From contig CP082844.1 of NCBI GenBank assembly GCA_019930625.1, forward strand, positions 6,572,001 to 6,636,000: 64,000 bases of DNA, given 5' to 3'. A program made the translations under genes and the position numbers. The DNA is from Nocardia asteroides (GTDB taxonomy: Bacteria > Actinomycetota > Actinomycetes > Mycobacteriales > Mycobacteriaceae). The notes beneath the pieces are model-generated. The model was not told the DNA's origin. It worked only from the letters and a program-made list of their open reading frames with translations, and made no database searches. Position 1 is the first letter of the stretch; each line of letters opens with the position of its first letter. Of this stretch, positions 32,293 through 50,423 are shown in pieces.

Positions 32293-32505
32293 CTCGTAGT
32301 TCCTCGATAGCGATCGACATCAGGTTCAGCTACTACTGTCCGCCGTGTACATCCCCATAACCAGTGACCTCAGGGAGCATCCAGCAACCCCCGGGGGTGG
32401 ACGAATAGCCACCCTTGGGTTCGTGGTCGCGGCCCCAAGAGGCCGATAGCCGCGCATCTCTGTCATCACCCACCCCCGCAGCCTTCGACGCGGGCGGCGC
32501 CGTCC

Positions 32506-32560
32506 ACTAGTTGCTTAGGTCAAGCAACTACTATATATTTGCGTAGCGCAAGTAACTAGT
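32506..32560. promoter_or_regulatory. Overlapping MarR-type operators at the marR-MFS promoter
   Basis: Arms TAGTTGCTT and AAGCAACTA form a perfect 9-bp inverted repeat (32508-32530). A second one, TTGCG/CGCAA, lies at 32539-32551, and the outer flanks ACTAGTTGCTT and AAGTAACTAGT mirror each other with one mismatch. A TATATAT stretch (32532-32538) between them looks like a -10 region. The site lies just upstream of the MarR gene, and the divergent ligase start is about 200 bp away, so the regulator may control both operons. Confidence 0.75.
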
Positions 32561-32574
32561 GGTCTGGAGTAGAC

Positions 32575-33072
32575 ATGGCAGTCTCGCCCGATACGGCCCA
32601 GAGCCTGATTCGAGAGCTCTACCTGATGGGCCGGGCCATCCGTATCGCGCTCGCACACCCGGAAGAAGGGCAATTGCTTCCGGGCGGCATCGGGGTACTG
32701 GGCGCCCTCGAATCCAAAGGCTCGAGTCGGCAAGGGGACCTCGCCGCGGACTTGTGCATCAGTCCCAGCGCATTGAGCAGGCACATCACCGAACTCGTCG
32801 GCGCCGACTACATCAGCAGGCACGCCGATCCCACCGACGGCCGGGCCACCCTGGTCCGGGTGACCGACGAGGGGCGCGATCTGCTGCACCGCGTGCGGGC
32901 ATCGCGGGCCCGGGGATTGCAGAACGTCCTGGCCGACTGGAGTGAAGACGACGCCGAGCAGGCCTGCCTCGCCGTCCAGAAGCTCCGCGGCGCACTGACC
33001 ACGCACGCCCACAGCACCCCCGTCGGCGCTCACCAGCCGGTTTCGAAAGAAAGTCAGGAAGTGGATGTCTAG
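32575..33072 (+). CDS. MarR-family transcriptional regulator
   Basis: A 165-residue MarR regulator. The winged helix-turn-helix includes GSSRQGDLAADLCISPSALS followed by RHITELVGADYISRHADPTDGR, the conserved wing with the Asp-x-Arg pattern. The ATG has GGAG upstream. It overlaps the MFS gene by eight bases, so both are one operon, and operator-like repeats precede it: the usual autoregulated efflux arrangement released by a small ligand. It faces the ligase-ACP-synthase operon. Confidence 0.93.
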   Translation: MAVSPDTAQSLIRELYLMGRAIRIALAHPEEGQLLPGGIGVLGALESKGSSRQGDLAADLCISPSALSRHITELVGADYISRHADPTDGRATLVRVTDEGRDLLHRVRASRARGLQNVLADWSEDDAEQACLAVQKLRGALTTHAHSTPVGAHQPVSKESQEVDV

Positions 33073-34714
33073 TTCAGTCGAGGCGGTGACGCGACGCGAC
33101 CCGTACGCGATGACCCACCGTGAAGTCTTGGAGGCGATGACCGGGCTGCTCGCGGCGTTGTTCACGGCGCTGCTCAGCACGACGATCGTCGCCACCGCGC
33201 TGCCCACCATCATCGGCGATCTACAGGGGTCGCAGACCGCCTACGCCTGGGTCATCACCGCGGCGCTGCTGGCGAACGCGGCCTCCACGCCGATCTGGGG
33301 CAAATTCGCCGACCTGTTCAACAAGAAGCTGCTTGTCCAATCCGCCATCGTCATTTTCGTGGTCGGCTCGGTCATCGCGGGCTTCGCAGGCGATGTCGCC
33401 CTGCTGCTGGTCGCGCGCGTCGTTCAGGGCGTCGGCATGGGCGGGTTGACCGCGCTCGCCGTCGCGATCATCGGCTCCATCGTCGCGCCGCGCGAACGCG
33501 GGCGATACTCCGGCTACATGGGCGCCGTCATGGCGGTTTCGATGTCCGGTGGGCCCATCCTCGGCGGCGTCATCGTCGACAGCCCGCTGGGCTGGCGCTG
33601 GTGTTTCTTCGTGTGCGTGCCGCTGGCGGTGATCGCACTGGCGCTCTTGCAGCGGACCCTGCGGCTGCCTACCGAGCGCAAGGACGGGGTGTCGATCGAC
33701 TGGCTCGGCGCCGCTGCGCTGACCGGCGGCGTGTCCGTGCTGCTCATCTGGGTGTCGTTCGCCGGAAAAGCCGGTTACTACGACTGGGTGTCGCGGGAGT
33801 CGGCGCTCTACGTGACCGCCGGCGTGCTGCTGCTGATCGCGACCGTGTGGGTCGAGTCCCGCGCCGAGTCGCCGATCATCCCCTTGCCGATCGTCACCGA
33901 ACGCACCACGGGCCTGGCGATCATCGCCTCGATCGCGGTCGGCGTCGGCATGTTCGGCGCGACCACCTTCCTAGGCCAGTACTTCCAGACCGCGCGCGGC
34001 TACTCCCCCACCGCCGCGGGCGTGCTGACCATCCCGCTCGTCGCGGGCATGCTGATCGCCTCGATCGGCTCCGGACAGCTGATCACCCGGCGCGGAAAGT
34101 GGAAGGCTTTCGTGGTCGCCGGAGCCGCGCTGCTGGTGGCCGGGTTCACGCTGCTCTCGACGATCGACCACGCGACGAGCCTGTGGCTGGTCGGCGGATA
34201 CATCACCGTCGTCGGACTCGGCGTCGGCATGATGATGCAGAACCTCGTCCTGGCCGTGCAGAACACGGTGAGCGTGCACGACATCGGCGCCGCGTCCAGC
34301 AGTGTCGCCTTCTTCCGCACTTTCGGTGGCGCGATCGGTGTCTCGGTGCTGGGTTCCGTGCTGGCCACCCGGGTCGGTGAACTGTCCGCGGAGGGATTCG
34401 GCAGGCTCGGTATCCGGACCGAGTCCTCCGGCGGCGGCAACCTGGATATCGGCGCACTTCCCGCGCCCATCGCGACCATCGTGCGCGCCTCCTACGGCGA
34501 CGCGACCGGGCGGATTTTCCTCATCGCCGCGGCCGCGACGGTGGTCGCGCTCATCGCGGCCGCGCTGCTGCCGAACCGCCCGCTGCGCCGCACCATCGAC
34601 ATCGATCCGGCAGTGGACCCGATGCAGTCCGACGCTCGCACCACCACTCGGCAGGCGGGTTCGGGGAGTCCCGCGCAGCAGGCTGACGCCGGACAACCGG
34701 CTCTGCTCAACTGA
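33065..34714 (+). CDS. MFS drug exporter, DHA2 (14-helix) type
   Basis: A 549-residue exporter with about 14 hydrophobic helices. Motifs include TTIVATALPTIIGDL in the first helix, GKFADLFNKK after helix 2 and RVVQGVGMGGLTALA. The last 40 residues are polar. It overlaps the MarR gene and so is probably induced when MarR is released. Its place next to the RedL-like operon suggests export of, or resistance to, that product, but general drug efflux is equally possible. Confidence 0.92.
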   Translation: MSSSVEAVTRRDPYAMTHREVLEAMTGLLAALFTALLSTTIVATALPTIIGDLQGSQTAYAWVITAALLANAASTPIWGKFADLFNKKLLVQSAIVIFVVGSVIAGFAGDVALLLVARVVQGVGMGGLTALAVAIIGSIVAPRERGRYSGYMGAVMAVSMSGGPILGGVIVDSPLGWRWCFFVCVPLAVIALALLQRTLRLPTERKDGVSIDWLGAAALTGGVSVLLIWVSFAGKAGYYDWVSRESALYVTAGVLLLIATVWVESRAESPIIPLPIVTERTTGLAIIASIAVGVGMFGATTFLGQYFQTARGYSPTAAGVLTIPLVAGMLIASIGSGQLITRRGKWKAFVVAGAALLVAGFTLLSTIDHATSLWLVGGYITVVGLGVGMMMQNLVLAVQNTVSVHDIGAASSSVAFFRTFGGAIGVSVLGSVLATRVGELSAEGFGRLGIRTESSGGGNLDIGALPAPIATIVRASYGDATGRIFLIAAAATVVALIAAALLPNRPLRRTIDIDPAVDPMQSDARTTTRQAGSGSPAQQADAGQPALLN

Positions 34715-37334: not shown

Positions 37335-37604
37335 CGTGATCTCCTTCGCCATGGGGACCGAGCACCTGTGAACCTAGCTCCGGCCACCACGAAAATACCG
37401 AGTAGCGCGGTACTCGCCTTTCGGCAGGTTCGGACTCGGCACACTCGCTCGGCCGTCACGCCGCTTGCACCCGGCGACCGGACCTCGGTCGGGGACACCC
37501 GCCCACGGCGCGAGCAGCCGACGGGGATTCTCGCCGCGGATCCGTATTCTCCACGCGAATCCACGGCGAGAGCCGGCCTGCGCGCGGACGAGCCGCGCAA
37601 TCGG

Positions 37605-38546
37605 TCAGCGGAAGGCCCGCCGGTACGCCTGAGGCGTCACACCCACGGTCTTGCGAAAGACCTTCCGGAAGGCGGCCACCGAAGAGAAACCCGTCTGGCC
37701 GGTGATGCATTCCATCGTGAGGATGGTCGTCTCGAGCAATACCTGGGCCTTTCGCACCCGGGCGGTCTGGAGCCACTCGTTCGGCGTCATCCGGACCTGC
37801 TCGTGGAAGCGCCGGATCAGCGTGCGCTTGCTGACTCCGGCTCGCTCCGCGAGATCGAGCACGGTGATCTTCTCACCGAGCATCGTCTCCGCCCACTCCA
37901 ATGTGGGATTGATCGACTTGCTGTCCGCCTCCGAACGCGGACGTTCCGCGATGAACTGCGCTTGCCCCCCGTCGCGTGTCAGTGGCATCACCGAGAGCCG
38001 GGCGGTATCCGCCGCGACAGCGGTGCCGTAATCCTGCCGAACCATATGGAGGCACAGATCCAGTCCCGCCGCGGCGCCGGCCGAGGTCAGGATGCTCCCG
38101 TTGTCCACGTACAGCACCGTGGGGTCCACGCGGACCCGCGGATAGCTCCTCGACAATTCGGTAGCGGCCATCCAATGCGTCGTTGCCCGCCTGCCATCGA
38201 GCAGGCCGACCGAGGCGAGCGTGAACGCACCCAAGCAGATCGATGCGACCCTCGCGCCGCGCTCATGGGCACGCATCAATGCCCTTCTCAATCGCTCCGA
38301 TGGCTGCGCCCGGTAACTCATCGCTCCTGGGACGACGACGGTTCCGGCCTCCTCCTCGAGGAATTCGATGTCACCGAGGCATGAGATCCCGAAGAACTTC
38401 GACGGAACGTCGGAGCGCACCCCGCATACCTCGACTCGGTATGCGGGCTCGCCATCCTCCTGTCGGGCACGGCCGAAGATTTCGATGGGCACCGAGAGAT
38501 CGAACGGAATCACATCATCGACGGCCAGAACAGCCAATGACCTCAT
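37605..38546 (-). CDS. AraC-family regulator with DJ-1/PfpI domain (GlxA type)
   Basis: A 313-residue GlxA-type regulator. The N-terminal DJ-1/PfpI-like domain (about 1-190) contains the nucleophile-elbow-like SICLGAFTLA and RRATTHWMA. The C-terminal AraC helix-turn-helix pair (about 215-313) contains LAERAGVSKRTLIRRFHEQV and ITGQTGFSSVAAFRKVFRKTVGV split around the second motif. It is the last gene of the isonitrile-halogenase operon, starting about 10 bp after the halogenase stop, so it is the likely pathway-specific regulator. Confidence 0.92.
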   Translation of the reverse strand: MRSLAVLAVDDVIPFDLSVPIEIFGRARQEDGEPAYRVEVCGVRSDVPSKFFGISCLGDIEFLEEEAGTVVVPGAMSYRAQPSERLRRALMRAHERGARVASICLGAFTLASVGLLDGRRATTHWMAATELSRSYPRVRVDPTVLYVDNGSILTSAGAAAGLDLCLHMVRQDYGTAVAADTARLSVMPLTRDGGQAQFIAERPRSEADSKSINPTLEWAETMLGEKITVLDLAERAGVSKRTLIRRFHEQVRMTPNEWLQTARVRKAQVLLETTILTMECITGQTGFSSVAAFRKVFRKTVGVTPQAYRRAFR

Positions 38547-38555
38547 GTCCTCGAC

Positions 38556-40352
38556 CTAAACGACTTGCTGGTCCGCTTCCGGCCCGGCAATCACCAACCC
38601 CGCTCGGATCAAGCGCTTCAAGGCCCGCCCCTGCAACACCGTCAACTGTGGCGCCAGCTCCGACCACCGGGCGGGGCCTCGGGTCAGCGTTTCCCATAGT
38701 TCCTTGCCGCCGTCCCGTTCCAGGCACCGCACCTCGATCTCGGGGTCCGCCGCGGAATAGATCCGGTGGCACGGCACGGTGTCGGCCAGTGGCGAAGGCG
38801 CGGCGTCACCGTTGGCGAGGAGGTCTCGCCAGTACGCGGCCAGCCCGTCACGCGCCTCCTGGGGGATCTCGAACGGCGGCGACATGCCTTTGAAGCCCGG
38901 TATGTCGGCTCCCATGCCCGAGCGGATCCGTGCGTCTTCCGACAGCGCCACGATGTCGCCCTGCGCCAGTTCGACCGCGTCCGCGGCGGTGAAAGCCCGC
39001 AGATAAGGTCCTTCGGTGGCGAGGTCACGCGGGTCACGGGTCCCCTTCGTCATGATGTTCAGCAGGTCGGGCACCAGCGCGGTGTTCAGCAGCGCCTGGA
39101 ACGTCCCTTCGGTGGCGTTGTCGACCTCCACTCGCCGCCCTTGCGCGCTCCAGTACGGGCTGTCGGGATGCGAACGCGAGATCTCGTGGTACCACTGGTC
39201 GATGCTCAGCGCCCATGTCTCCGCCATCCCGCGCCACTCGACGTCGTAATCACGCCAGAGGTCTTGCTTGGCTTGCTCGTCCAACTCCTTGTCGAACGTC
39301 TTCCGCAGGACCAATGCGGCCGCCCAGGCTTGGGTGACGGCGAAGGACATCCCGGAAGAGAACAGGGGGTCGACGAAGTACGACGCGTCCCCGACCGCCA
39401 TCCAGCGATCCGAGTACGAGCCGAAGCACTCGCTGATCCGGGAATAGTTGGTCGCCGTCAGCATCTCGGGACGAATCGGTTCGGCGTCCGCGACCAGGTC
39501 CTGCAGTACCGGGATCGACTTGATGGTCTTCAGGAAGATGTCCGGGTCACGCAGATCCACGCGGGCGATCGATTCCGGATTGGTGACGATACCGATCGAC
39601 CACACGGTTTCCCGAGTGCCATCGACCAGACGAGGCGTCGGGATGTACCACACCCACCCGTGCTCGAAGGCCACCGCGTAGATCGGCGACAGATCCTCCG
39701 CCCGGAAGACGTTCCAGTCACCCGCAGCCCGTTGCGCCGGCACGCAGTTGCGGTAATGCGACCAGACGGCCACATTGCGGTACTCCGAAAGCCATTGCTT
39801 GTCCCGCTGCGAACCGCGGGCGGCCACCTGATTCGCCCGGCCGGACGCGTCGACGAAATACCCGGCCCTGACCTCGGTGCCGTCTTCCAGGACGACCGTG
39901 GCGTCCTTCGCACCGGGGAGGAACCGCACGATCCGCACTCCCTGGAAGACGTGCGCACCACAGGATTCGGCGTGATCGAGCAGAACGGTGTCGAATTCGG
40001 CGCGATTGACGTGAACCGACCATCGGTACACGCCGTCGACCAGGTAGTCCGAGTGCTCGAAGAAGCCCACGAACGGCCGCTGGGTGTCCCACTGGTAGAT
40101 ACCGCCGAACTTCTGGATCCAGCACTCGCTCGCGAGCACCTTCTCGAGAGCGCCGCTGGCTTGCAGGACGGGAACCAGTGGATGCGCTCCCGATTCCCCG
40201 ATGTGCTCGCGGGGGAACACCTCGCGGTCGAAAATCGCCACGCGCAGGTCTGTTTCGCGGCACAACATCGCGGCGAGAGTGGACCCCGCGGGACCACCGC
40301 CCATGATGACGACGTCGTACTCGGTTGCTGGTCTGGAAACTTGTGGAGCCAT
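38556..40352 (-). CDS. Flavin-dependent halogenase
   Basis: A 598-residue FAD enzyme. The N-terminal dinucleotide site is GGGPAGS (18-24). The halogenase signature WxWxIP is present as GWVWYIP (232-238), and a Lys in IQKFGGIYQW (Lys81) sits where carrier-type halogenases have their catalytic lysine. GDASYFVDPLFSSG (321-334) is the second FAD motif. The last ~100 residues form an extra region resembling a small winged helix. It should halogenate an electron-rich aromatic using FADH2 and halide; free versus carrier-bound substrate is open. It follows the dioxygenase gene by 27 bp behind AGAGGA, in one operon. A plain FAD monooxygenase is the alternative. Confidence 0.85.
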   Translation of the reverse strand: MAPQVSRPATEYDVVIMGGGPAGSTLAAMLCRETDLRVAIFDREVFPREHIGESGAHPLVPVLQASGALEKVLASECWIQKFGGIYQWDTQRPFVGFFEHSDYLVDGVYRWSVHVNRAEFDTVLLDHAESCGAHVFQGVRIVRFLPGAKDATVVLEDGTEVRAGYFVDASGRANQVAARGSQRDKQWLSEYRNVAVWSHYRNCVPAQRAAGDWNVFRAEDLSPIYAVAFEHGWVWYIPTPRLVDGTRETVWSIGIVTNPESIARVDLRDPDIFLKTIKSIPVLQDLVADAEPIRPEMLTATNYSRISECFGSYSDRWMAVGDASYFVDPLFSSGMSFAVTQAWAAALVLRKTFDKELDEQAKQDLWRDYDVEWRGMAETWALSIDQWYHEISRSHPDSPYWSAQGRRVEVDNATEGTFQALLNTALVPDLLNIMTKGTRDPRDLATEGPYLRAFTAADAVELAQGDIVALSEDARIRSGMGADIPGFKGMSPPFEIPQEARDGLAAYWRDLLANGDAAPSPLADTVPCHRIYSAADPEIEVRCLERDGGKELWETLTRGPARWSELAPQLTVLQGRALKRLIRAGLVIAGPEADQQVV

Positions 40353-40379
40353 TGACGTTCCTCTCCGATGGCTGATTGC

Positions 40380-41183
40380 TCAGATGATTTGAATGCGCTG
40401 AAGATGCCGCGAGACCGATCCGGTGAACGCATTCCTGCCGTGCAGCAGAGCGTGGTTCTCGACCACGACGATGTCGCCGGTCCGCCACTGGTGGGCATAG
40501 CAGTAGCGCGCGTCGTGCAGCCGCTCGCGCAGGTCCTCCATGACGCGCACCCCGTCCTCGGCCGAGATTCCCTCGACGGTCAAGAACAGCGGATTGGCGT
40601 AGCGCGCCGGATCCAGCGGCTCGGCGTATCGGATCGTCGTCTCGCCCGTGACGGGATGCGTTCCGAGCAGCGGCCATTCGGCCGAGCCACCGTAGTGCGC
40701 AAGTTTGTCGGTCCGGTATGTGATCGTGGTGCGAGCCCAGAGCTCCTTCAGATCTTCCGGCGCCTCCCGGTAGACCTGAACGCTGTCACAGAACACGGTC
40801 TCGCCGCCGGCGCCCTCTCCTCGCACGCACTGGAAGAGGAAGAACCGCGGTACGTGCTCGGCGAACGCCCCGTCCCAGTGGAACGGGACATCGTCCCGGT
40901 CGAAAAGGTAGTTGTCGGGAGTGTCCCGGACCACCAGATCGAGAATCGACCCGAAGTTCCACTGAAGGATCTCGCCGGCCGCGCGGCAGTAGTTCTCCAG
41001 TTCCGGTTTGCCGAGCAGGCCGAATCCGCGCAGCACGACCACTTTCTCGCTGAGCGTCGTTGCGAGCAGCTCCTCGATCGGCACGTCGGCGAGGGTCTGC
41101 CCCTCCGTCGCGGACGCCACGAGACGGCCGAACGGCCGAAGCCGCTGCCCTCCCAGCAGCAATTCGCTCGAACTTTTCATCAT
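40380..41183 (-). CDS. Fe(II)/2-oxoglutarate dioxygenase, PvcB/IsnB-like
   Basis: A 267-residue TauD-type dioxygenase. The iron triad is visible as HWD (His102, Asp104) and a distal His in LLHGRNAF (His248), with a 2-oxoglutarate-binding Arg in SRHLQR (259). Next to an isonitrile synthase, this family converts the isonitrile amino acid to a vinyl isonitrile by oxidative decarboxylation (PvcB/IsnB type). I start at the first ATG of an ATGATG pair, behind GGAAGG; upstream frame overlaps the synthase gene. It begins 25 bp after the synthase stop. Confidence 0.88.
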   Translation of the reverse strand: MMKSSSELLLGGQRLRPFGRLVASATEGQTLADVPIEELLATTLSEKVVVLRGFGLLGKPELENYCRAAGEILQWNFGSILDLVVRDTPDNYLFDRDDVPFHWDGAFAEHVPRFFLFQCVRGEGAGGETVFCDSVQVYREAPEDLKELWARTTITYRTDKLAHYGGSAEWPLLGTHPVTGETTIRYAEPLDPARYANPLFLTVEGISAEDGVRVMEDLRERLHDARYCYAHQWRTGDIVVVENHALLHGRNAFTGSVSRHLQRIQII

Positions 41184-41208
41184 GACCTTATGACCTTCCT
41201 TACACTCG

Positions 41209-42234
41209 CTAGGAATCGGTTTGCGGCGTCCTGCCGAGGACGAAGTGACTGGGGCGACTGTTGCGCCATACCAAGCGAGCGCCCAATTCCTCGGCATGCA
41301 TCCGCTTGACCAGCGTCTGGCTGGTTCCGTCGTCGAGCACCACGCCGTGCCACGGCGTCAGCCAGCTGTCCTGGGTCCGCAGGAGATGGAAACCGATCTT
41401 CTCGGAATGATTCGCCTGCGGATGAATCGACAGTCGCACCGCCTCGGTGAAGATCTCCGCCATCAGGCGGCTCCACGCTTGGCTGCGCTGCACCACTTCG
41501 TACGCCGTCTCCTTCGACCGGTTCCGCCGTTGGGTGGCGGACAGGTCGGGCAGCAGCACGGCATTGTCCTCGACCATGAAACGGTGGATTCCGTTGAACA
41601 TTCGCCGTGCGGCAGGATCGGTGCGCACCGCTGCGCGTAGTGCGCCGATGCCGTCCGAGTACTCCGCCAGCAGACGCCGCCTGCGTTCGTCCCAGGTCAT
41701 CTCGGGCATCGCGTCCCGCAATCCGTACAGGCCGATGGAGCCGCCGCCGGTCGACCGGATCATCCGGCGAAGCTCCGTACCGTAGTGATCGACGTGCACG
41801 TCCGGGATTCCGAGCGTGTCGCTGAAGACATGGCCGTCGGAACAGATGGTCACGATCGCGCCCGGCCGGTAGACCGACGAGATCTGGTCACAGAATCCCT
41901 GCAGCGACTCGATCGCCAGTGCCTCGGCCATGTCGGGCAGACGACCGAGCGTCTTGCGGCGGTTACGCGACTTCGCCGGGAACGCCGGAATGACGAAATG
42001 GACCGGCGTACCTGCCTCGATGTACCGGATCACCTTGGGCAGGTGCGGTGCGAAACACTCCGCGCACGGAGCCAGCTCACACACCGACTTCGGCTCGGCG
42101 CTTCGCCGGCGCGCGAAGACCATGCGAAGTATCTCGGTGGCAACCGATTCCGCGTCATGGTCGTGTCTGGAGTAGGACTGTTGTCGCCCGAGCTCGTGGA
42201 GACGCTCGGACCCGTTGTCGACAGTCGTATTCAT
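41209..42234 (-). CDS. Isonitrile (isocyanide) synthase, PvcA/IsnA/DIT1 family
   Basis: A 341-residue member of the PvcA/DIT1 family, which converts an aromatic amino acid (Tyr or Trp) to its isonitrile using ribulose 5-phosphate. Signatures are VIPAFPAKS (81-89), LGRLPDMAE (96-104), the SDGHVFSD motif (132-139) and a Trp-rich C-terminal segment (SWLTPWHGVV). The length matches the family. The start ATG has GGAAGG upstream; longer frames begin in non-conserved sequence. It heads the operon with the PvcB-like dioxygenase, halogenase and AraC regulator. Tyr versus Trp preference cannot be read from the sequence. Confidence 0.92.
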   Translation of the reverse strand: MNTTVDNGSERLHELGRQQSYSRHDHDAESVATEILRMVFARRRSAEPKSVCELAPCAECFAPHLPKVIRYIEAGTPVHFVIPAFPAKSRNRRKTLGRLPDMAEALAIESLQGFCDQISSVYRPGAIVTICSDGHVFSDTLGIPDVHVDHYGTELRRMIRSTGGGSIGLYGLRDAMPEMTWDERRRRLLAEYSDGIGALRAAVRTDPAARRMFNGIHRFMVEDNAVLLPDLSATQRRNRSKETAYEVVQRSQAWSRLMAEIFTEAVRLSIHPQANHSEKIGFHLLRTQDSWLTPWHGVVLDDGTSQTLVKRMHAEELGARLVWRNSRPSHFVLGRTPQTDS

Positions 42235-42555
42235 TACTACCTTCCGAACATACGACACAGCGAGCGCACACAACCGGACCGCACGGCGCATTTCCGCGAT
42301 TCACGCGGACCGGACCGTCGGTGAATTGTCTGCGATCAGAATGCCTGAGCGGGATTCGAAATCAGGAAGGAGAATCCGTTCGAAACCCCGTATATGCGAA
42401 CCCTAAAAGTTCATAACCAGATGCGATTCACGTAATTCATTTGATCGAGCACCCCCCATATTCAGAACTCGTTCCCTGACTCAGAACACATCCCAGGATA
42501 CCGCCGAGGCGGCGGCGAGGCAACCGAATTGTTCCCATCGTCGATAAAACGTGAA
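42235..42555. other. AT-richer promoter region of the isonitrile operon
   Basis: About 320 bp between the isonitrile synthase start and the terminator of the next operon. The part near 42340-42470 is noticeably AT-richer than the genes around it and is the likely promoter zone of the leftward operon. No open frame with a ribosome binding site is seen. Confidence 0.5.
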
Positions 42556-42587
42556 TCGGAGGCCCGTGGCGCACCACGAGCCTCCGA
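42556..42587 (-). terminator. Terminator after the acyltransferase 3 gene
   Basis: A 14-bp stem with one G-T type mismatch (TCGGAGGCCCGTGG against CCACGAGCCTCCGA) and a four-base loop lies 40 bp past the stop of the leftward acyltransferase gene. In that direction the stem is followed by a T-rich stretch, the best intrinsic terminator on the left of the window. It separates the two leftward operons. Confidence 0.85.
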
Positions 42588-42626
42588 CCGGAAAATTTCC
42601 GCTGATTTCGAGAGCGATCCGAAGGT

Positions 42627-43772
42627 CTAACCGACCACCCTTTCTTCGACGCTGGGAGCTCGCCTCGGCCGAGCGAACCGACGCATAGCAGGTGCTTCCA
42701 CGAAGGTGAACAACATCCAAGCGGCGAGGATGTTCAAACAGAATAGAAGGACGATTATCAGCACGGCGACCGGCACACTGAACGTGGCGGCATCCATGAG
42801 GCGGCGGACATAGAACAAAGTGACGCCCTGACAGATATAGAAGGCGAAGGAGATCTCACCGAGCTTGACCGAGAGCCGGCTCGACAGGAACCGCGACGTC
42901 CCCTCGATGTCGGACTGGGCGGCCGATCCGATCAGCAGGGCGAGCGGAACCGCGGTCGCCAGGACGAAGCCGACGTAGAACGGCGTGTACATCGCCACCA
43001 CGTAACCCACCCCGACCGCGGCCACCGCGGCCCAGAGCGGAATCCGTATCCATCGCCCTTCCATCACGATGCGCGCCACGAACACACCGAGGAAGAATTC
43101 GAACAGACGCGACGGAGGAAAGAGGTAACCGAACCACAGCTGCAGAACGGGAATCGGCGTGAGTTCGGATTTCTCGGAGCCGGGGACGACGAAGGCCGTC
43201 AAGAGGACGATCACGGCAATGCCCGCCACCATGGCGGCGGCTCCGTGCCACAGATACTTCCTGTCGATTCGCAGCACCGCCGGTATCACGAATGGAAACA
43301 GAATATAGAACAGCAGCTCACAGGACAACGTCCACGACGGCGTGTTGACTCCTGCATTGATGTAGTTCTGTGGGAACCACGCATGGAGGAGGAAGAGATT
43401 CGGCAACCAAGCTTTCCATGGCGTGATAGCCGCGGCGAAAAGAACCATCGACGCCACCCAGAGCGTGAGGTGGTTGGGGAATATCTTGACCACTCGTCGC
43501 CGGATGAACTGCAATTTGCTCGATCCCGGTTTCCACGACCAGGTCAGGACGAAGCCGCTCAAAATGAAGAAGAAGGACACCCCGAGGAATCCCAACTTCC
43601 CTACAGCCCACGCCGCGTCGTACGCGACGTCCGGATCGGCGAAAAGATTGACCGGCTTGTAGGGAGGTATCGGCGAGTTCGGCAGCATCACGTGGAAAAC
43701 GAACACCGAGAGCGCCGCGAAGAACCGCAGTCCGGTCAGGGACGGCAGCCGTTTGCGCTTGTCGACTTCCAT
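42627..43772 (-). CDS. Acyltransferase 3 family membrane protein
   Basis: A 381-residue membrane acyltransferase with about ten hydrophobic helices. The N-terminal family pattern LTGLRFFAALSVFVFHV carries the conserved Arg and His, and FFFILSGFVLTW follows. Members O-acylate sugars, lipids or natural products at the membrane. It is the last gene of a three-gene operon, four bases after the flavoenzyme gene. Modification of the pathway product or of an envelope polymer are both possible. Confidence 0.9.
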   Translation of the reverse strand: MEVDKRKRLPSLTGLRFFAALSVFVFHVMLPNSPIPPYKPVNLFADPDVAYDAAWAVGKLGFLGVSFFFILSGFVLTWSWKPGSSKLQFIRRRVVKIFPNHLTLWVASMVLFAAAITPWKAWLPNLFLLHAWFPQNYINAGVNTPSWTLSCELLFYILFPFVIPAVLRIDRKYLWHGAAAMVAGIAVIVLLTAFVVPGSEKSELTPIPVLQLWFGYLFPPSRLFEFFLGVFVARIVMEGRWIRIPLWAAVAAVGVGYVVAMYTPFYVGFVLATAVPLALLIGSAAQSDIEGTSRFLSSRLSVKLGEISFAFYICQGVTLFYVRRLMDAATFSVPVAVLIIVLLFCLNILAAWMLFTFVEAPAMRRFARPRRAPSVEERVVG

Positions 43773-43776
43773 CGGA

Positions 43777-44955
43777 TCAGCCCAGCCCTACGACGAACGG
43801 GAACTCCGGCCTGCCGCCCATCAGGAAGGCTCCGGTGGACTGGATCACCTGGTCGTGCGCGATGATGTGCCGCGCCATCGTGTTCATGTCGCGCAGCCAG
43901 ATATCCAGCGGATCCGGCCGGTAGATCGAATCCGTACCCACCAGCTCGCACAGGCGGGAGACGATCCGCAGCGCGGCGCGGAAAGCATGGGTCCTGGCCA
44001 GCGCGGTCGCGATCCTCGTGTCCGGTGGCAATTCCGCGAAACGGTTGCCCTCCAGAGCGTCCCACAGTGCCTCCACCGTGTTGACGACGGCGCCGCGCGC
44101 GACGATGTACTCCATCTCGCACTCGCCCAGCAGGTACTGCGCACGGTAGTTGTCCGCCCATTTCTGCCCGGCCGCAGGCACTGTCTTGCCGTCCGCGAGT
44201 CCGCGGACGTAGTCCAACGCCGCGCGCGCCGTACCCAGCGGTACGCCGGGCATGATCCGGGCCAGCGCTTCGGGCTCGGCCAGCTTCCCGCTACAGCTCT
44301 TCCTTTCGCCGAACGCGAAGGAATGATGCTCGGGGACGAAGAGGTCCTCGACCGCGTAGTCGTTGCTTCCGCTGCCACGAAGACCTGTGGTGTCCCAGGT
44401 GTCGAACACGGTGACCTGATCGCGGCGCATGAAGAAGAGCCGGACGACCGGCCTGCCGTCCGCGGTCGCCTCCGGGATTCCTCCCGATGTCACGAATGCC
44501 CCGCCGATGACCAGGTCGGCATGCGTGATCGCGCTGCCGAACTTCCATCGTCCGGTCAGTCGATAACCACCGGGGGTGCGCTCGGCACGGCCGGCCGGGA
44601 AGATCAGACCCGCCGTGATCAGGTCCTGGCTCGGCATGAGCTCCGCGATCGCCTGCTCGTCGAGATATCCCGCGTAGATGCCGGTGGCGGCGCCGATCAT
44701 GGCACACCACCCGGTCGCCGTGTCGCCGTACGACAGGGCCTCGACCACTTCCAGTTGCTCGAGGGAGGTCAAGCCGGGACCGCCGATCTCCGAGCTGAAA
44801 CCCATTCGGTAGACGCCGATCTCGCGGAGTCGCTCCACGATGTCCACCGGAAGCTTGCGCTCGGCATCGATCTCGCTGCGGCGTGCCGCCAAATCGGGCG
44901 CCAGGGAACGTACCGCCTCCAGCAGGGAGGTCGCCGAAATTGTTGCTGCAGTCAT
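43777..44955 (-). CDS. Acyl-CoA-dehydrogenase-fold flavoenzyme (probable monooxygenase type)
   Basis: A 392-residue protein of the acyl-CoA dehydrogenase fold, closest in feel to the HsaA/flavin-dependent monooxygenase branch: ALSYGDTATGWCAMIGA near residue 80, YRLTGRWKFGSAITHAD near 140 and WDTTGLRGSGSNDYAV near 185. The catalytic Glu of true acyl-CoA dehydrogenases is not apparent. Such enzymes hydroxylate aromatics or amines with reduced flavin from a partner. The ATG lies 11 bp after the SDR stop. It may oxidise an intermediate of the neighbouring isonitrile pathway; that link is inferred from proximity. Confidence 0.82.
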   Translation of the reverse strand: MTAATISATSLLEAVRSLAPDLAARRSEIDAERKLPVDIVERLREIGVYRMGFSSEIGGPGLTSLEQLEVVEALSYGDTATGWCAMIGAATGIYAGYLDEQAIAELMPSQDLITAGLIFPAGRAERTPGGYRLTGRWKFGSAITHADLVIGGAFVTSGGIPEATADGRPVVRLFFMRRDQVTVFDTWDTTGLRGSGSNDYAVEDLFVPEHHSFAFGERKSCSGKLAEPEALARIMPGVPLGTARAALDYVRGLADGKTVPAAGQKWADNYRAQYLLGECEMEYIVARGAVVNTVEALWDALEGNRFAELPPDTRIATALARTHAFRAALRIVSRLCELVGTDSIYRPDPLDIWLRDMNTMARHIIAHDQVIQSTGAFLMGGRPEFPFVVGLG

Positions 44956-44966
44956 CGTTCGATTTC

Positions 44967-45782
44967 CTATGCCAGAGAGGTTTCGTGCGATTCGGACCGA
45001 TCGCGCAGGAGCAGCTCGATCGCCGAGGTGGTCTGCTCGGGTCCCAGCGCGGAGTAGCCGCCGTCCACGGTCCACTCGGCGCCGGTCACGAAGCTCGCCC
45101 TGGACGAAGCGAGAAAGGCGGCCACCTCACCGATTTCCCGGGCATCGGCCGCCCTGCCCAGCATGTGGAATCGGGAGGCCACCGCGTCGGTCCGCGCCCG
45201 GTCCCCTTCGGTGATCTCATCCATCACACGCGACCAGGTCCAGCCCGGCGAGACACTGTTGACGCGGATCCCGTCACCGGCGTATTCCAGCGCGAGACTT
45301 CGGGTCAGTTGCAGCAACCCGGCCTTGCTCACCGGGTATTGCACTCGCCCGGCCTGCGCGATCCGTCCACTGGGCGAGGTGAAGTTGACGATGGACCCTC
45401 CCGCGTCTCGCAGAGCGGATCGCGCCTGTCCGCACAACATCGCCGTACCGACGACATTGGTGTTCAGCACCTCCAGCCACTGTGCCCGTATGTCCGCGGT
45501 GGAGCCGTCGTCGCCGTAGACGCAGGCGATGTTGACCAGAGCGTCTATCCGGCCGTGCCGGTCGACCGCGGTCGCGACGAACGACCTGATGGACGAATCG
45601 CTGCGGAGATCGATCGGCACGAAGACGGCGCGATCGCCGATACCGGCGGCCGTCCCCTTCCCGCCGTCCGCATCGATGTCTCCCAGCACAACATTCGCGG
45701 AATACCCGGCGAAGACCCGAGCGACCTCCGCGCCGATTATGGTTGCCGCACCGGTTACGAGTACCGTCTTACCTTCGAACAA
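44967..45782 (-). CDS. SDR-family oxidoreductase
   Basis: A 271-residue classical SDR. The cofactor loop TGAATIIG (10-17) is followed by GDIDAD at the end of strand 2, suggesting NAD(H). The active site is intact: Ser in NFTSPSGR, then YPVSK with Tyr149 and Lys153, and PGW after the catalytic region. The TTG start has GGGGAG six bases upstream. It is the first gene of the operon with the flavoenzyme and acyltransferase, divergent from the antiporter gene. It should reduce a carbonyl or oxidise an alcohol in the pathway. Confidence 0.92.
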   Translation of the reverse strand: MFEGKTVLVTGAATIIGAEVARVFAGYSANVVLGDIDADGGKGTAAGIGDRAVFVPIDLRSDSSIRSFVATAVDRHGRIDALVNIACVYGDDGSTADIRAQWLEVLNTNVVGTAMLCGQARSALRDAGGSIVNFTSPSGRIAQAGRVQYPVSKAGLLQLTRSLALEYAGDGIRVNSVSPGWTWSRVMDEITEGDRARTDAVASRFHMLGRAADAREIGEVAAFLASSRASFVTGAEWTVDGGYSALGPEQTTSAIELLLRDRSESHETSLA

Positions 45783-46092
45783 CGTCGACTCCCCTCAGCT
45801 GCGCCCTCCGACTGGCTCCAGCCATAGATCGAAGTATTCACAACCAAAAGAGCGACCAGCCAGTCCGATTCGCGACAGACATGCACTCCTTTGCGCCACA
45901 CGCTCCGGACCCCGTACCGAACGTGGCGTAGGTCACTCTCCCCCCTCATTCGCCGCGCGGTTGCGATATCGTCTCGATGCAGGTAGTCCGTCTTTCGGGG
46001 GTTTCCGCACCGCGGTTCGACGTACGGACAGACCGCCTGCGAGGGTCGAATCCGACCTCGCGATCTCCTCAATGCCGAACGGAGTCGAGGCG
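45783..46092. other. Divergent promoter region (SDR operon / antiporter operon)
   Basis: About 310 bp between the leftward SDR and the rightward antiporter; both promoters must lie here. I see no clear repeat or RNA element, and open frames crossing it lack ribosome binding sites. Confidence 0.45.
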
Positions 46093-47361
46093 TTGCCGAG
46101 CAACCAAATGATCTTGTTATTGCTGGACCTCGTACTCATCGTGGCCGCGGCCCGGCTGCTGGGATGGCTGGCCGAGAAATGCGGCCAACCCCCGGTTATC
46201 GGCGAGATCGTGGCAGGAATACTCGCGGGGCCGACGATCCTCGGCGCGGAGCTGTCCGCAGCGGTGTTTCCGCACGACATCCGGTCGTATCTCACGGCTT
46301 TCGCCAATGTCGGCGTGATGATCTTCATGTTCTCGGCAGGCCTCGAGATGGATCTCCGGTCGCTCGCCGGTCGCAGGCGGTCGGTCACCGCTGTGGCGGT
46401 TTCGGCCTACGTCGTTCCCTTCGCGCTCGGTTCCGCGATCGCGATCTGGGCGCTGGCACGGCACGGTGAAGGAAATCGGCTGACATTCGCCCTCTTCATC
46501 GGGTGCGCGTTGGCCGTGACGGCGTTTCCGGTGCTGGCCCGCATCCTGCACGACCGCGGGCTGCTGGGCACCCGCCTGGGCCAGTCGGCGATGACCAGCG
46601 CCGCATTCGACGACGTACTCGCCTGGTGCGTTCTGGCGGTAGTCATCGGTATCGCGCAGCCCGACCTCGATCACCAGTGGCGGATACTACTGTTCATCCC
46701 GCTGGTCATGGTGTTGTGGTGGGCGGTGCGTCCGGCGCTGTGCCGTATCGCCCGCAGCGGGTCCGAGAAGAACACCGGCAACATGGTATTCATCGGCGTC
46801 GCGGGCGCTCTGCTATTGGGAGCCACCACCGAGTGGCTGGGCCTGCACCTGATCTTCGGCGCGTTCCTGTTCGGTGTGGTCTTCCCCCGGCCGCTGCGCA
46901 CGGCCGTCGAGGACGGCGCCCGACTGCTGAGCAGTATCTTCCTGCCTGCTTTCTTCGTGGTCGCCGGCCTGCAAGTGGATCTCGGCGCGCTCGACCGCGC
47001 GGGCGTCGTCGAGTTCGTCGCGATCATGTTCGCCGCCCTCGTTGGCAAGCTGGGCGGCACCTACGTGGCGGCCCGCTGCGGCGGAATCGACCGGGTGGAG
47101 TCCGCGGCCCTCGCCGCGCTGATGAACACCCGGGGGCTGACGGAGCTGGTGATCCTGAACATCGGACTGACGATCGGCGTCATCGGCCAGCAGTTGTACT
47201 CGCTGCTGGTCATCATGGCCTTGGTCACCACCGCGATGACGGCACCGTTGCTGAGAATCTGCGGCGTCACCCGCGCGGTGCGGCACGGTGACCCACCGTC
47301 GGCTACAAAAGAGCCGGAACAGGAGGTCGACGCCGCCGCGCAGACCGAGGCTCGAGCATGA
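46093..47361 (+). CDS. Cation:proton antiporter, CPA2/Kef type
   Basis: A 422-residue membrane antiporter with about 12 helices. Characteristic segments are GQPPVIGEIVAGILAGP in the second helix region, FMFSAGLEMDL, the AFDDVLAWCVLA helix with paired Asp, and MNTRGLTELVILNIGL. It should exchange Na+ or K+ for H+. I use the TTG with GGAG eight bases upstream; an ATG at 46072 adds seven codons without a clear site. It overlaps the following HAD phosphatase by four bases. Divergence from the SDR operon does not by itself tie it to that pathway. Confidence 0.9.
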   Translation: MPSNQMILLLLDLVLIVAAARLLGWLAEKCGQPPVIGEIVAGILAGPTILGAELSAAVFPHDIRSYLTAFANVGVMIFMFSAGLEMDLRSLAGRRRSVTAVAVSAYVVPFALGSAIAIWALARHGEGNRLTFALFIGCALAVTAFPVLARILHDRGLLGTRLGQSAMTSAAFDDVLAWCVLAVVIGIAQPDLDHQWRILLFIPLVMVLWWAVRPALCRIARSGSEKNTGNMVFIGVAGALLLGATTEWLGLHLIFGAFLFGVVFPRPLRTAVEDGARLLSSIFLPAFFVVAGLQVDLGALDRAGVVEFVAIMFAALVGKLGGTYVAARCGGIDRVESAALAALMNTRGLTELVILNIGLTIGVIGQQLYSLLVIMALVTTAMTAPLLRICGVTRAVRHGDPPSATKEPEQEVDAAAQTEARA

Positions 47362-48065
47362 CGCCGCCCAGAGAGCCGGACCCGGGATCCTTCCCCGCGC
47401 CGGAGCTGATCGATCGAAAGGTCGCTGTCCCAGCTGTTTTCGTCGACGTCGATGAAACGCTGGTCCGGAGCGTAACCTTCCTGTCCCTGTTCGTCTTCGA
47501 CGCGCGGCGCCGGGGGCACGGCGCCGAAGCCGACGCCGTGCTTCGAGAGTTCCGGACGCTTCGTGCGGCAGGCATGAGCCGCGGCGAATCACATCGGTGG
47601 TTCTATCGGCACTGGGCCGGCCGTGACACCGCCGACCTGCGGCGTACCGGAAGAGACTGGTTCGCCTCCAGTTCCGCGGACCCGGCTTTCTTCAATGCCG
47701 CCGTGCGGCGACGACTGGACGAGCTCTCCCGCACCGGCAGTCGCATCGTGCTGGTCTCCGGCTCGATCGCCCCGGCGCTGGAACCGATCGCCGAAGCCGT
47801 TGGCGCGGCAACGGTTCTGTGCACGAAGATGGAGACGGCCGCCGGAAAGTACACCGGCGACGTCCTCGCGACGATGGTCGGTACCGACAAGTCCGCCGCC
47901 CTGCTGCGGTATGCCGAACAAGCGGCCATCGATCCCAAGGCGTGCATGGCCTTCGGCGATCATCATTCCGATGTCGCGATGTTCGAGCTGGTGGGTCATC
48001 CGGTCGTCGTCGGCGACACCGACCCACGACTGCGCGATTATCCCGCGCAACGGCTTCCCGGCTAG
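47358..48065 (+). CDS. HAD-IB family phosphatase
   Basis: A 235-residue HAD hydrolase. Motif I is FVDVDETLV (nucleophile Asp30, Asp32), motif II is LVSGS, and motif IV is GDHHSDVAMF. The helical cap between motifs I and II is of the subclass IB (SerB-like) type. It acts on a small phosphorylated compound. The ATGA overlap with the antiporter gene indicates coupling, an uncommon pairing whose purpose is unclear. Confidence 0.9.
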   Translation: MTPPREPDPGSFPAPELIDRKVAVPAVFVDVDETLVRSVTFLSLFVFDARRRGHGAEADAVLREFRTLRAAGMSRGESHRWFYRHWAGRDTADLRRTGRDWFASSSADPAFFNAAVRRRLDELSRTGSRIVLVSGSIAPALEPIAEAVGAATVLCTKMETAAGKYTGDVLATMVGTDKSAALLRYAEQAAIDPKACMAFGDHHSDVAMFELVGHPVVVGDTDPRLRDYPAQRLPG

Positions 48066-48106
48066 GGCCCGAGCCCCCGGCCGAGCAGTTCCCGGAGGCG
48101 CGCCGT

Positions 48107-49057
48107 TCAGTTCCCGACCGTGAACATGCGCCGGTACTGGCCGGGGCTGACGCCCAGATGACGTTTGAACACCGCCCGGGTGTTGGCAGGGTTGCCGAGG
48201 CCGACGCGGTAGCCGATCTGATCGACCGGGAGGCCGGTGGTCTCGAGCAGCTCTCGAGCCTGATTCAGGCGCGCGCTGGTGATCCACACATGCGTGGAGG
48301 TTCCGGTTTCTTCGCGAAAGCGCCGGATGAAGCTACGGCGCGAGAGATTGGAACGCCTGGCGAGGTCCTCGATCGAATGCCTGCGATCGAGGTTCGCGAG
48401 AATCCACGCGCGTGTCTCGGCGAGCACGCCGGAGGAGGTCTGCGGCGAGAACTGCCGGGTGTACTGCGCTTGGCCGCCCTCACGGACCGGCGGCGCCACC
48501 AGGTCGCGGGCACGTTCGTTCGCGGCCGCCGCGCCGACGTCCTTGCGCACCACGTGCAGGCAGAGATCGATTCCGCTGGTGACCCCCGCGGAGGTCATCA
48601 CGTCGCCATCATCGACGAACAATCGATCGGAATGAACGTCGATGTCGGGGTATCGGCGCTGAAGCAACGGCGCGGCGCGCCAGTGCGTCGTAGCGGGCCG
48701 GCCGGCCAGCAGGCCCGCCGCGGCGAGCGCGAAAGTGCCGGTACAGATCGACAACATTCGCGCACCCCGTGCGTGGGCGTCGCGAAGCGATCGGATCACG
48801 GGGTCCGGCAGTGGCTGCTCGTAGGTGGAATAGCCGGGCATTATCACCGTATCGGCATGGCGGAGAGCCTCCAGCCCGGCCGTCGCCACACACGACAGCC
48901 CAGGAATCGAGGTCGGCACGGTCGGCGATGCCGCGCACACTTCGAGGCGATAGTGGGGGTCGGAACCGAACACGTCGATCGGAATCGCGGCGTCCAGAAC
49001 CACTACTTCGTCGGGAATGACGACCGTCACACGACGCGTTCCCCCATCCGGTTGCAT
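48107..49057 (-). CDS. AraC-family regulator with DJ-1/PfpI domain (GlxA type)
   Basis: A 316-residue GlxA-type regulator, the second in the window. The DJ-1/PfpI-like domain contains SICTGTFALAAAGLL and RPATTHWRA. The AraC domain contains LARRSNLSRRSFIRRFREET and IGYRVGLGNPANTRAVFKRHLGV split around the second helix-turn-helix. It converges with the HAD gene and diverges from the lone ketosynthase gene across about 105 bp, so that gene is a plausible target. The ATG at MQPDGG is chosen because upstream residues run into the ketosynthase region. Confidence 0.9.
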   Translation of the reverse strand: MQPDGGTRRVTVVIPDEVVVLDAAIPIDVFGSDPHYRLEVCAASPTVPTSIPGLSCVATAGLEALRHADTVIMPGYSTYEQPLPDPVIRSLRDAHARGARMLSICTGTFALAAAGLLAGRPATTHWRAAPLLQRRYPDIDVHSDRLFVDDGDVMTSAGVTSGIDLCLHVVRKDVGAAAANERARDLVAPPVREGGQAQYTRQFSPQTSSGVLAETRAWILANLDRRHSIEDLARRSNLSRRSFIRRFREETGTSTHVWITSARLNQARELLETTGLPVDQIGYRVGLGNPANTRAVFKRHLGVSPGQYRRMFTVGN

Positions 49058-49163
49058 GGCCCGATCGTAGCGGTGATCGGCACTCGGGCTACTACCCCGC
49101 GGTTCCGGCACGCGCATAGCCTCGCTGGAGCATCTGAGCCGACGAGCCGAAAGAAGGGGTTTG

Positions 49164-50423
49164 ATGTCCGATTTGGCGGACTTCTCTACCAGCAACGGAG
49201 GATTCCGGGGTGTGGTCGTGACTGCTATCGAGATGTCGACCGCTGTCGGCGCCGACACCGACGCCACCTGGAAAGGACTCCTCGCCGGCGAAACCGGGAT
49301 CGCCAAGGTACAAGACCCCGACTTCGAGCGCTTCAAGGTTCCCGTCGACATCGGCGGCCAGTTCAAACTGGATCCGACCGACGAACTCAGCCGCGTCCAG
49401 AAGCGACGCATGTCGTATGTCCAGCAGATCGCCTACGTCATGGGCAACCGGATCTGGGACACCGCGGGCCGGCCGGAAGTCGATCTCGATCGACTGGGCG
49501 TCTGCATCGGCACCGGCCTCGGTGGCGCCGACACGATCATCGAGTCCAACGACCAGATGCGAGAGGCGGGCTACCGCAAAGTGTCCCCGTTCGCGGTGCC
49601 CATGGCCATGCCCAATGGCGCCGCGGCGGTGGTCGGGCTGGAACTCGGCGCGCGAGCCAGCGTGATCACGCCCGTCTCCGCGTGTGCTTCCGGATGCGAG
49701 GCGCTGGTGCACGCGTGGCGTTCGATCATCCTGGGCGAAGCCGACATCGTCGTGGCGGGGGGCGTGGAGGGCCGGATCAATCCGCTCGCGGTGGCCGGGT
49801 TCTCGATGATGCGGGCGCTGAGCACACGGATCGATGAACCCGAGCGCGCGTCACGCCCGTTCGATCGGGACCGAGACGGTTTCGTCTTCGGCGAGGCCGC
49901 GGCCCTGTTCGTGCTGGAGTCGGAGGACCACGCACGGGCTCGGGGGGCGAAACCGCTGGCTCGCCTGATGGGCGCGGGCCTCACCGCCGACGGGTACCAC
50001 ATGGTTCTCCCGCACCCGGACGGCGCGGGAAACATTCGAGCCATGCGTCGTGCGCTCGAAACGGCGGGGGTGAGCGCTTCCGACATCGATCACGTCAACG
50101 CCCATGCGACAGCCACTCCCTTCGGCGACCTAGCGGAGGCCAGGGGAATCCGAGAGGCGGTGGGCGACCACGCATCGGTCTACGCGCCCAAATCCGCTCT
50201 GGGCCACTCGGTGGGCGCGGTGGGCGCGGTGGAAGCCGCCCTGACCGTGCTCAGCGTGCGGGACGGCGTGGTGCCGCCCACGTTGAATCTCGACAATCAA
50301 GATCCCGAGATCGATCTCGATATCGTCCACGGCAGCGCCCGGACTCAGAAGATCGAGTACGCGCTGAACAACTCGTACGGTTTCGGTGGCCACAACGCGG
50401 CCGTCGTGTTCGGCCGCTGCTGA
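49164..50423 (+). CDS. Beta-ketoacyl-ACP synthase, KasA/FabF type
   Basis: A 419-residue condensing enzyme. The active site is complete: Cys174 in SACASG, His314 in [11 protein letters not shown], Lys343 and His348 in [12 protein letters not shown]. The wording of these motifs is that of mycolic-acid-type KasA/KasB ketosynthases. It stands alone, without ACP or malonyltransferase genes, in contrast to housekeeping kasA-kasB operons. It may be an accessory elongating enzyme or serve one of the nearby pathways. The ATG is chosen over the adjacent TTG because of the AAGGGG spacing. Confidence 0.9.

What the first reader, a model, noticed from the sequence alone, without database searches (positions are those of the whole stretch)
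37605..42234. Isonitrile synthase, dioxygenase and flavin halogenase in one operon
A PvcA/IsnA-type synthase, a PvcB/IsnB-type Fe(II)/2OG enzyme, a halogenase with WxWxIP and a candidate catalytic Lys81, and a GlxA-type regulator are packed in one leftward operon with gaps of 10-27 bp. The first two predict a vinyl isonitrile from Tyr or Trp; the third predicts a halogenated aromatic ring. I do not recall a characterised actinobacterial pathway with this combination, so the product could be new.
Basis: partly seen in the sequence, partly recalled or inferred. Interest (0 to 1): 0.82.

Follow-up and report, generated by a model that had tools for sequence, protein, structure and literature searches.

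The report
Nocardia isonitrile cluster with flavin halogenase
This stretch of a Nocardia genome holds a real, evolutionarily conserved set of genes that most likely makes a halogen-bearing isonitrile compound; the set is larger and more widespread than first seen, and it sits beside a spare copy of a fatty-acid enzyme that may hint at what the compound attacks.

Summary
Confirmed. At 37605-42234 (minus strand) lie isnA, isnB, a 598-aa flavin halogenase and a GlxA/FtrA-like regulator, 25, 27 and 9 bp apart. K81 and WxWxIP are invariant in the 120 halogenase homologues listed, and the predicted fold matches flavin halogenases. The pairing is not chance: all 17 halogenase copies in 16 of 150 Nocardia genomes lie within 2.7 kb of an isnA; the trio recurs in Streptomyces. 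The whole block (37426-45918) is missing from a syntenic relative, as are a nearby exporter and phosphatase.

The 'vinyl isonitrile' is not secured: IsnB has Ala at both published diagnostic positions and fits neither known type. Tyr versus Trp, halide and halogenation site are unresolved.

Most novel lead: a KasA-type ketosynthase beside the cluster. In one relative the cluster-side copy is a fast-evolving duplicate of that strain's own housekeeping-type KasA, as expected of target self-resistance; but a relative without the cluster keeps the window-type gene. Verdict: new variant of a known kind of pathway, with an open, testable product and target.

The parts
37605..38546 (-). GlxA/FtrA-like regulator (DJ-1/PfpI + AraC-type HTH), reg1
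   Evidence: Pfam; FtrA model 314.5 bits, below its cut-off 425
38556..40352 (-). flavin-dependent halogenase, 598 aa; K81, WVWYIP 233-238, FVDPLFSSG 326-334
   Evidence: PF04820; PDB PltA 1.2e-40, CmlS 1.8e-34; motifs in the 120 listed homologues; fold
40380..41183 (-). IsnB-type Fe(II)/2-oxoglutarate enzyme, variant with Ala at both diagnostic positions
   Evidence: PF02668; PDB 7tcl 5e-51, PvcB 4e-44; alignment
41209..42234 (-). isonitrile synthase IsnA/PvcA family
   Evidence: PF05141 257.8 bits; PvcA 3e59 8e-66
42554..42589 (-). terminator-like stem (16 pairs) between the acyltransferase unit and isnA
   Evidence: the number of such sites in the region (5) is at chance level (4.4)
42627..43772 (-). 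acyltransferase-3 family membrane protein
   Evidence: PF01757; kept upstream of isnA in the same Nocardia subtype
43777..44955 (-). acyl-CoA-dehydrogenase-type flavin monooxygenase (HsaA/XiaF-like)
   Evidence: scanned with an over-long N-terminus; start ATG 44955
44967..45782 (-). short-chain dehydrogenase, not in the finding
   Evidence: found by tblastn with a relative's SDR; NCBIfam
46072..47361 (+). CPA2 cation:proton antiporter, probable start 46072; sits beside this halogenase family also in some Streptomyces loci
   Evidence: PF00999; start
47358..48065 (+). HAD-IB phosphatase, conserved neighbour; missing in G015 with the cluster
48107..49057 (-). second GlxA/FtrA-like regulator, reg2; only remnants in G015 (start uncertain)
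49161..50423 (+). KasA/KasB-type beta-ketoacyl-ACP synthase beside the cluster (possible self-resistance gene; membership uncertain)
   Evidence: NF005916 623 bits over cut-off 560; KasA PDB 9e-170
33065..34714 (+). DHA2-type multidrug MFS exporter, nearly all of it missing in G015 together with the cluster

Best explanation
The block 37426-45918 is a compact, conserved Nocardia gene cluster for a halogenated aromatic isonitrile. IsnA converts the amino group of L-Tyr or L-Trp into an isonitrile (known chemistry of the family). IsnB, a variant of its family, oxidises the isocyano acid; whether it gives a vinyl isonitrile, an isocyanoacrylate or something else is open. The flavin halogenase adds Cl or Br to the small molecule, through a hypohalite relayed by Lys81 (family chemistry); a ring carbon is the likeliest site. 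The monooxygenase, SDR and acyltransferase, on a probable second transcript, tailor the product; the MFS pump exports it; GlxA-type regulators control it. Shown here: gene content, motifs, conservation, joint absence in one relative. Inferred: every reaction, the substrate, the halide, the order of steps.
For: Families. Lys81 and the W, W, I, P of WxWxIP are invariant in 120 of 120 listed homologues (120 best of 386); the predicted fold (pLDDT 87.8) matches CmlS, FasV, CndH, PltA, RadH, CtcP. Trio: 14 of 16 loci carry isnA, isnB and hal, 12 of the 14 in the order isnA-isnB-hal; in the other two (L010, L011) the antiporter gene lies between isnA and hal; the two loci without isnA are an Aquimarina and a Streptomyces with 41% and 29% halogenase relatives. 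17 of 17 Nocardia halogenase copies lie within 2.7 kb of isnA. 25 of 119 halogenase homologues share their contig length with an isnA homologue, against a mean of 0.2 when lengths are shifted. A syntenic Nocardia, G015, lacks the block reg1 to SDR, plus nearly all of the MFS and the HAD, marking the unit's borders. The gaps between the block's genes are 4-27 bp except 392 bp before isnA, so a carrier protein gene is unlikely and a free substrate is expected; small ORFs were not searched for.
Against: No chemistry is known. IsnB departs from both characterised types. The CmlS-like fold allows a non-aromatic target. Of 10 Streptomyces-group halogenase copies 2 are adjacent to isnA, 2 about 12 kb away, and 6 over 100 kb away or on another contig, so the halogenase family is not tied to isonitriles everywhere. 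No flavin reductase turned up among the genes scanned, and none was searched for by itself.
Confidence: 0.7

Rival explanations
1. The FAD enzyme is a hydroxylase or other monooxygenase that kept halogenase motifs, and the product carries no halogen.
For: NCBIfam also gives scores to the QhpG (113.7 bits) and LodB (102.9 bits) families; the monooxygenases RslO9 and PieE appear lower down among the fold matches.
Against: QhpG and LodB scores are far below their cut-offs (240, 400), as is CmlS's own (144 against 900). Lys81 and WxWxIP are invariant in 120 of 120. Of the 40 best Foldseek rows all are named as halogenases, chlorinases or brominases except six rows of the structural-genomics entry 3nix (with the name of 8zop).
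Confidence: 0.13
2. The halogenase acts on a non-aromatic carbon (side chain or an acyl group later moved by the acyltransferase), like CmlS, rather than on the aromatic ring.
For: CmlS is the best fold match (1.6e-28) and the best NCBIfam hit (144 bits). A cation antiporter also sits in the chloramphenicol cluster (cmlN; PMC4249514, passages) as CPA2 does here; whether the two antiporters are related was not tested.
Against: PltA, a pyrrole chlorinase (recalled), is the best sequence match; the CmlS cut-off of 900 is not met; no carrier protein gene was found in the block.
Confidence: 0.17
3. The nearby KasA-type ketosynthase is self-resistance: the product inhibits KasA/FAS-II condensing enzymes.
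For: KasA-family model passed. KS within about 9 kb of hal in 12 of 13 clusters of the acyltransferase/monooxygenase/SDR subtype and 0 of 4 other Nocardia halogenase clusters. In G120 the cluster-side KS is sister (100/99) to that strain's own copy in the housekeeping-type clade, with a longer branch, 0.12 against 0.013. In G067 a KS lies inside the operon. Precedent: thiotetronate clusters carry a KASI/II gene (PMC5518548, passages).
Against: 10 of the 12 are close relatives with shared synteny. G015 has no cluster but keeps the KS at 92%. The same KS clade (70% or more) occurs in 10 of 28 genomes without hal, 5 of these without PF05141. The catalytic residues are intact, so a biosynthetic or lipid role is possible too.
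Confidence: 0.2
4. An ordinary known isonitrile cluster (paerucumarin, rhabduscin, xanthocillin or hapalindole type) with a bystander halogenase.
For: isnA and isnB are clear family members.
Against: The trio is conserved down to about 50% identity, in Streptomyces too; the isnB class differs; the tailoring genes differ (recalled for the known clusters).
Confidence: 0.05

Closest known systems
Paerucumarin / rhabduscin-type isonitrile pathways (PvcA-PvcB, IsnA-IsnB)
   Same: Homologous isonitrile synthase and Fe/2OG partner in tandem
   Different: IsnB diagnostic residues Ala/Ala instead of K/R+N/H or L+C; flavin halogenase in the operon
Hapalindole / ambiguine / welwitindolinone clusters of cyanobacteria (PMC4236562, seen in search listing only; details recalled)
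   Same: Isonitrile synthase plus Fe/2OG enzyme plus halogenation in one pathway
   Different: There the halogenase is a non-haem iron enzyme acting on an aliphatic carbon (recalled); here a flavin enzyme
Flavin halogenases CmlS, PltA, RadH, CndH, CtcP
   Same: Fold and motifs (that the motifs mark the class is recalled)
   Different: Own family of about 600 aa, none of the solved ones close (16-28% identity in the 40 best Foldseek rows)
Brasilidine A and other Nocardia indole isonitriles (brasilidine: a reference title seen in PMC12671133; indisocin recalled)
   Same: Nocardia is a known source of indole isonitriles, which favours Trp slightly
   Different: No gene cluster or halogen known to me for them
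Thiotetronate clusters with cluster-borne KASI/II (PMC5518548, passages)
   Same: A ketosynthase copy linked to a biosynthetic cluster
   Different: Here the link is positional and phylogenetic only; no target shown

Membership tests
Isonitrile synthase IsnA/PvcA | PF05141 domain above curated cut-off | tested here: met
   257.8 bits, cut-off 26.4
Isonitrile synthase IsnA/PvcA | NCBIfam L-tyrosine isonitrile synthase PvcA equivalog (NF045653) cut-off | tested here: not met
   217.8 bits, cut-off 600: family member, not a called PvcA orthologue
Isonitrile synthase IsnA/PvcA | Makes an isonitrile from Tyr or Trp | not testable with these tools
   needs enzyme assay
PIsnB-type (vinyl isonitrile) Fe/2OG enzyme | K/R at PIsnB K107 and N/H at N188 | tested here: not met
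   Ala at both (rule from PMC9467999 section 12; the place of N188 is inferred from the alignment, where 7tcl has N and PvcB has C)
PvcB-type (isocyanoacrylate) Fe/2OG enzyme | Leu and Cys at the same two positions | tested here: not met
   Ala at both
IsnB/PvcB family in general | TauD domain, HWD...H metal motif, Arg that holds the carboxylate | tested here: met
   PF02668; HWDG, LLHGR, RHLQR present in the window enzyme (roles from PMC9467999)
Flavin-dependent halogenase | FAD GxGxxG, WxWxIP, catalytic Lys | tested here: met
Flavin-dependent halogenase | Halide incorporation | not testable with these tools
   needs assay
CmlS (chloramphenicol halogenase) | NF033113 cut-off | tested here: not met
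   144.4 bits, cut-off 900
KasA/KasB ketosynthase (gene at 49161) | NF005916 cut-off and Cys-His-His | tested here: met
   623.1 bits, cut-off 560; residues intact
Target-duplication self-resistance gene | Extra target copy linked to the cluster and absent or less tied without it | tested here: inconclusive
   12 of 13 subtype clusters linked; but kept in cluster-less G015

The most novel reading that the evidence does not exclude
The cluster makes a halogenated (perhaps acylated) aromatic isonitrile, formed by a third functional class of IsnB, whose target is the mycolic-acid/FAS-II ketosynthase KasA; cluster-linked KasA copies, evolved independently at least twice, protect the producer.
Probability: 0.15. 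Interest if true: 0.87.

Novelty: new variant of a known kind. Interest (0 to 1): 0.6.

Why it matters
It joins isonitrile formation to flavin-dependent halogenation in a gene set conserved in part of Nocardia and found in a few Streptomyces; I found no report of such a pathway in the searches listed. The Ala/Ala IsnB class is a direct test of the published rule for desaturation outcome. The cluster-linked KasA copies give a cheap, decisive way to ask whether the product hits the mycolic-acid condensing enzyme, reported as a druggable tuberculosis target (PMC9519891, abstract start and passages).

Tried and rejected
Vinyl isonitrile as a firm forecast: rejected, residues fit neither class. HAD-PvcA fusion P0209 as a link between the phosphatase and isonitrile synthesis: dropped; its N-terminal part has no significant match to the window HAD (best E 0.99) and looks like a frameshifted, unrelated phosphatase. 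A wide phylum draw gave little: 1 of 396 genomes with the halogenase (the window's own; at most 3 candidates a genome scored in the rows shown), 4 of 396 with PF05141 (own included). Promoter scan: none found, 1.3 expected. The first ORF choices for the monooxygenase, antiporter and reg2 were too long at the N-terminus (searches used the long forms; searches used slightly trimmed forms of antiporter and reg2); likely starts are (reg2 remains uncertain). Tyr versus Trp could not be settled: the one paper listed was not read. The diazo paper PMC13061610 concerns another cluster (passages). Papers: PMC9467999 abstract, first part of Results and section 12; PMC4249514, PMC5518548, PMC8269204, PMC9519891, PMC12671133, PMC13061610 passages only; all others search listings only.
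Full report
Observation. The window lies in a genome of 7.4 Mb that is Nocardia by its closest relatives. The four genes of the finding are real and in place: isnA 41209-42234, isnB 40380-41183, halogenase 38556-40352 and regulator 37605-38546, all on the minus strand, with gaps of 25, 27 and 9 bp. isnA is a clear PF05141 protein close to solved PvcA (8e-66). isnB is closest to 7tcl and to PvcB. The halogenase is closest by sequence to PltA, Mpy16 and CmlS.

The halogenase. Among the 120 best listed of 386 homologues, Lys81 and the W, W, I and P of WxWxIP (233-238) are invariant, and so is FVDPLFSSG except for position 333 (Ser in 118 of 120). A confident model (pLDDT 87.8, pTM 0.90) is closest to CmlS, then FasV, CndH, PltA, RadH and CtcP. 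NCBIfam models of the related QhpG and LodB proteins score far below their cut-offs, and so does CmlS. I take it to be a true halogenase. The CmlS match and the absence of a carrier protein gene leave the site of halogenation open.

IsnB. PMC9467999 (section 12) separates vinyl-isonitrile enzymes (K/R at position 107, N/H at 188) from isocyanoacrylate enzymes (L, C), and says that single mutations at these places did not switch the product of one enzyme, so the rule is a correlate. The window enzyme has Ala at both (the place of N188 inferred from the alignment). Of 53 aligned rows besides the window, many of them repeats of one locus, 46 have Ala at the second position; every halogenase-linked row has Ala at both. 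Of the other seven rows (no halogenase relative in the short stretches held), five have R with N or H and two have V with L. The metal ligands and the carboxylate-binding Arg are kept in the window enzyme. So this is a third sequence class whose reaction the published rule does not forecast; it also includes Nocardia and Streptomyces-group enzymes without an adjacent halogenase. The M105A/Y106F changes against PIsnB would widen or reshape the ring pocket (inference), compatible with an indole or an already halogenated ring.

Extent of the cluster. Relatives exposed an SDR gene at 44967-45782 that overlaps over-long ORF calls. SDR, monooxygenase (best solved relatives Rv3094c and XiaF; XiaF's activity on indole is recalled) and acyltransferase form a second unit; a 16-pair terminator-like hairpin at 42554-42589 separates it from isnA (though such sites occur at chance number in the region). 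In G015, a syntenic genome without a PF05141 match or this halogenase, window 37426-45918 is missing with about 60 bp in its place; 32397-34662 (nearly all of the MFS exporter) and 47282-48779 (HAD and most of reg2) are missing too, while the S8 protease, antiporter and ketosynthase stay. This marks the unit's borders and, on one genome's evidence, ties the exporter and the phosphatase to it. Whether G015 lost it or never had it is not shown, but reg2 remnants favour loss.

Spread. Halogenase (E <= 1e-60): 16 of 150 Nocardia genomes, 17 copies, all within 2.7 kb of isnA; PF05141: 28 of 150. Named carriers include N. asiatica, abscessus, arthritidis, exalbida, gamkensis, niwae, altamirensis (two copies), amikacinitolerans, aurea and pseudobrasiliensis, and Streptomyces sp. 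SAJ15. In 343 Streptomyces-group genomes 8 have the halogenase (10 copies; a lower bound, since 3 candidates a genome were scored) and all 8 have PF05141, against 69 of 343 overall; 2 copies are adjacent, 2 about 12 kb away, 6 over 100 kb away or on another contig. 25 of 119 homologues share a contig length with an isnA homologue, against 0.2 by shifted control. A phylum-wide draw found the halogenase in 1 of 396 genomes, the window's own, so it is rare outside these groups. Variants in relatives: styrene-monooxygenase-like, MFS and LysR genes (L012 scanned; L013 by homology), a luciferase-like gene in L012; P450 and UbiA prenyltransferase (L016); UbiA and NUDIX with isnAB but no halogenase (L086). 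So the core is isnA-isnB-halogenase with exchangeable tailoring.

The ketosynthase. The gene at 49161-50423 passes the KasA/KasB model (623 over 560) and is one of four KasA-type genes found in the genome at E <= 1e-110. It lies within about 9 kb of the halogenase in the 10 window-clade genomes (window included), inside the operon in G067, and a different KasA-type gene lies 3 kb away in G120: 12 of 13 clusters of the subtype with acyltransferase, monooxygenase and SDR (the exception is G009, whose nearest copy sits at the end of another contig), and 0 of 4 other Nocardia halogenase clusters. In G120 the cluster-side copy is a separate event: it is sister (100/99) to that genome's own copy in the housekeeping-type clade and has a longer branch (0.12 against 0.013). 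It differs at 20 columns that are fixed in 10 rows of that clade, one next to the gatekeeper Phe404 of KasA (NNSFAFGG instead of NNSFGFGG; gatekeeper named in PMC9519891; the placing is mine). Window-type copies read NNSYGFGG in 18 of 18 PF05141-bearing genomes and in G015, and NNSFGFGG in the 4 from genomes without PF05141, but those 4 form one clade. This resembles target self-resistance as proposed for thiotetronates (PMC5518548). Against it: the window-type gene stays in cluster-less G015 (92%), the clade occurs in 10 of 28 genomes without the halogenase (13 of 16 with it; Fisher 0.005, not corrected for kinship), and catalytic residues are intact, so it may serve lipid or product synthesis. 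That the G120 copy at 4.71 Mb is the true housekeeping gene is inferred from the tree, not tested by its neighbours.

Verdict. Substrate, halide, order of steps and bioactivity are unknown. Novelty: new variant of a known kind.

Noticed in passing
window 46072-47361: A CPA2 cation antiporter sits beside this halogenase family also in Streptomyces-group loci without an adjacent isnA (L076, L081, L083, L084), much as cmlN sits in the chloramphenicol cluster (PMC4249514, passages); why halogenase clusters carry antiporters is unclear.
   Followed up: partly
L085, L086, L088, L089: Nocardia isnA-isnB loci without the halogenase carry a UbiA prenyltransferase (L085, L086, L088) and/or a NUDIX gene (L085, L086, L089); only L086 was scanned, the others by homology. 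They may make prenylated indole isonitriles (inference).
   Followed up: no
L012 and L013: Two Nocardia isnA-isnB-hal loci have a styrene-monooxygenase-like gene (L012 scanned; L013 by homology), suggesting epoxidation of a vinyl group.
   Followed up: no
L010 1947-2801 and its relatives in L011 and L092: A rhodanese-domain protein lies near the isn genes in three loci (L010 scanned, the others by homology); rhodaneses could meet cyanide or isonitrile toxicity.
   Followed up: no
L076 3382-4659: One Streptomyces locus has a second halogenase-family protein (425 aa, 26% identical) next to the antiporter gene and about 4 kb from the 600-aa halogenase.
   Followed up: no
L015: An Aquimarina contig encodes a 41% halogenase relative with no isnA in its 17.8 kb.
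   Followed up: no
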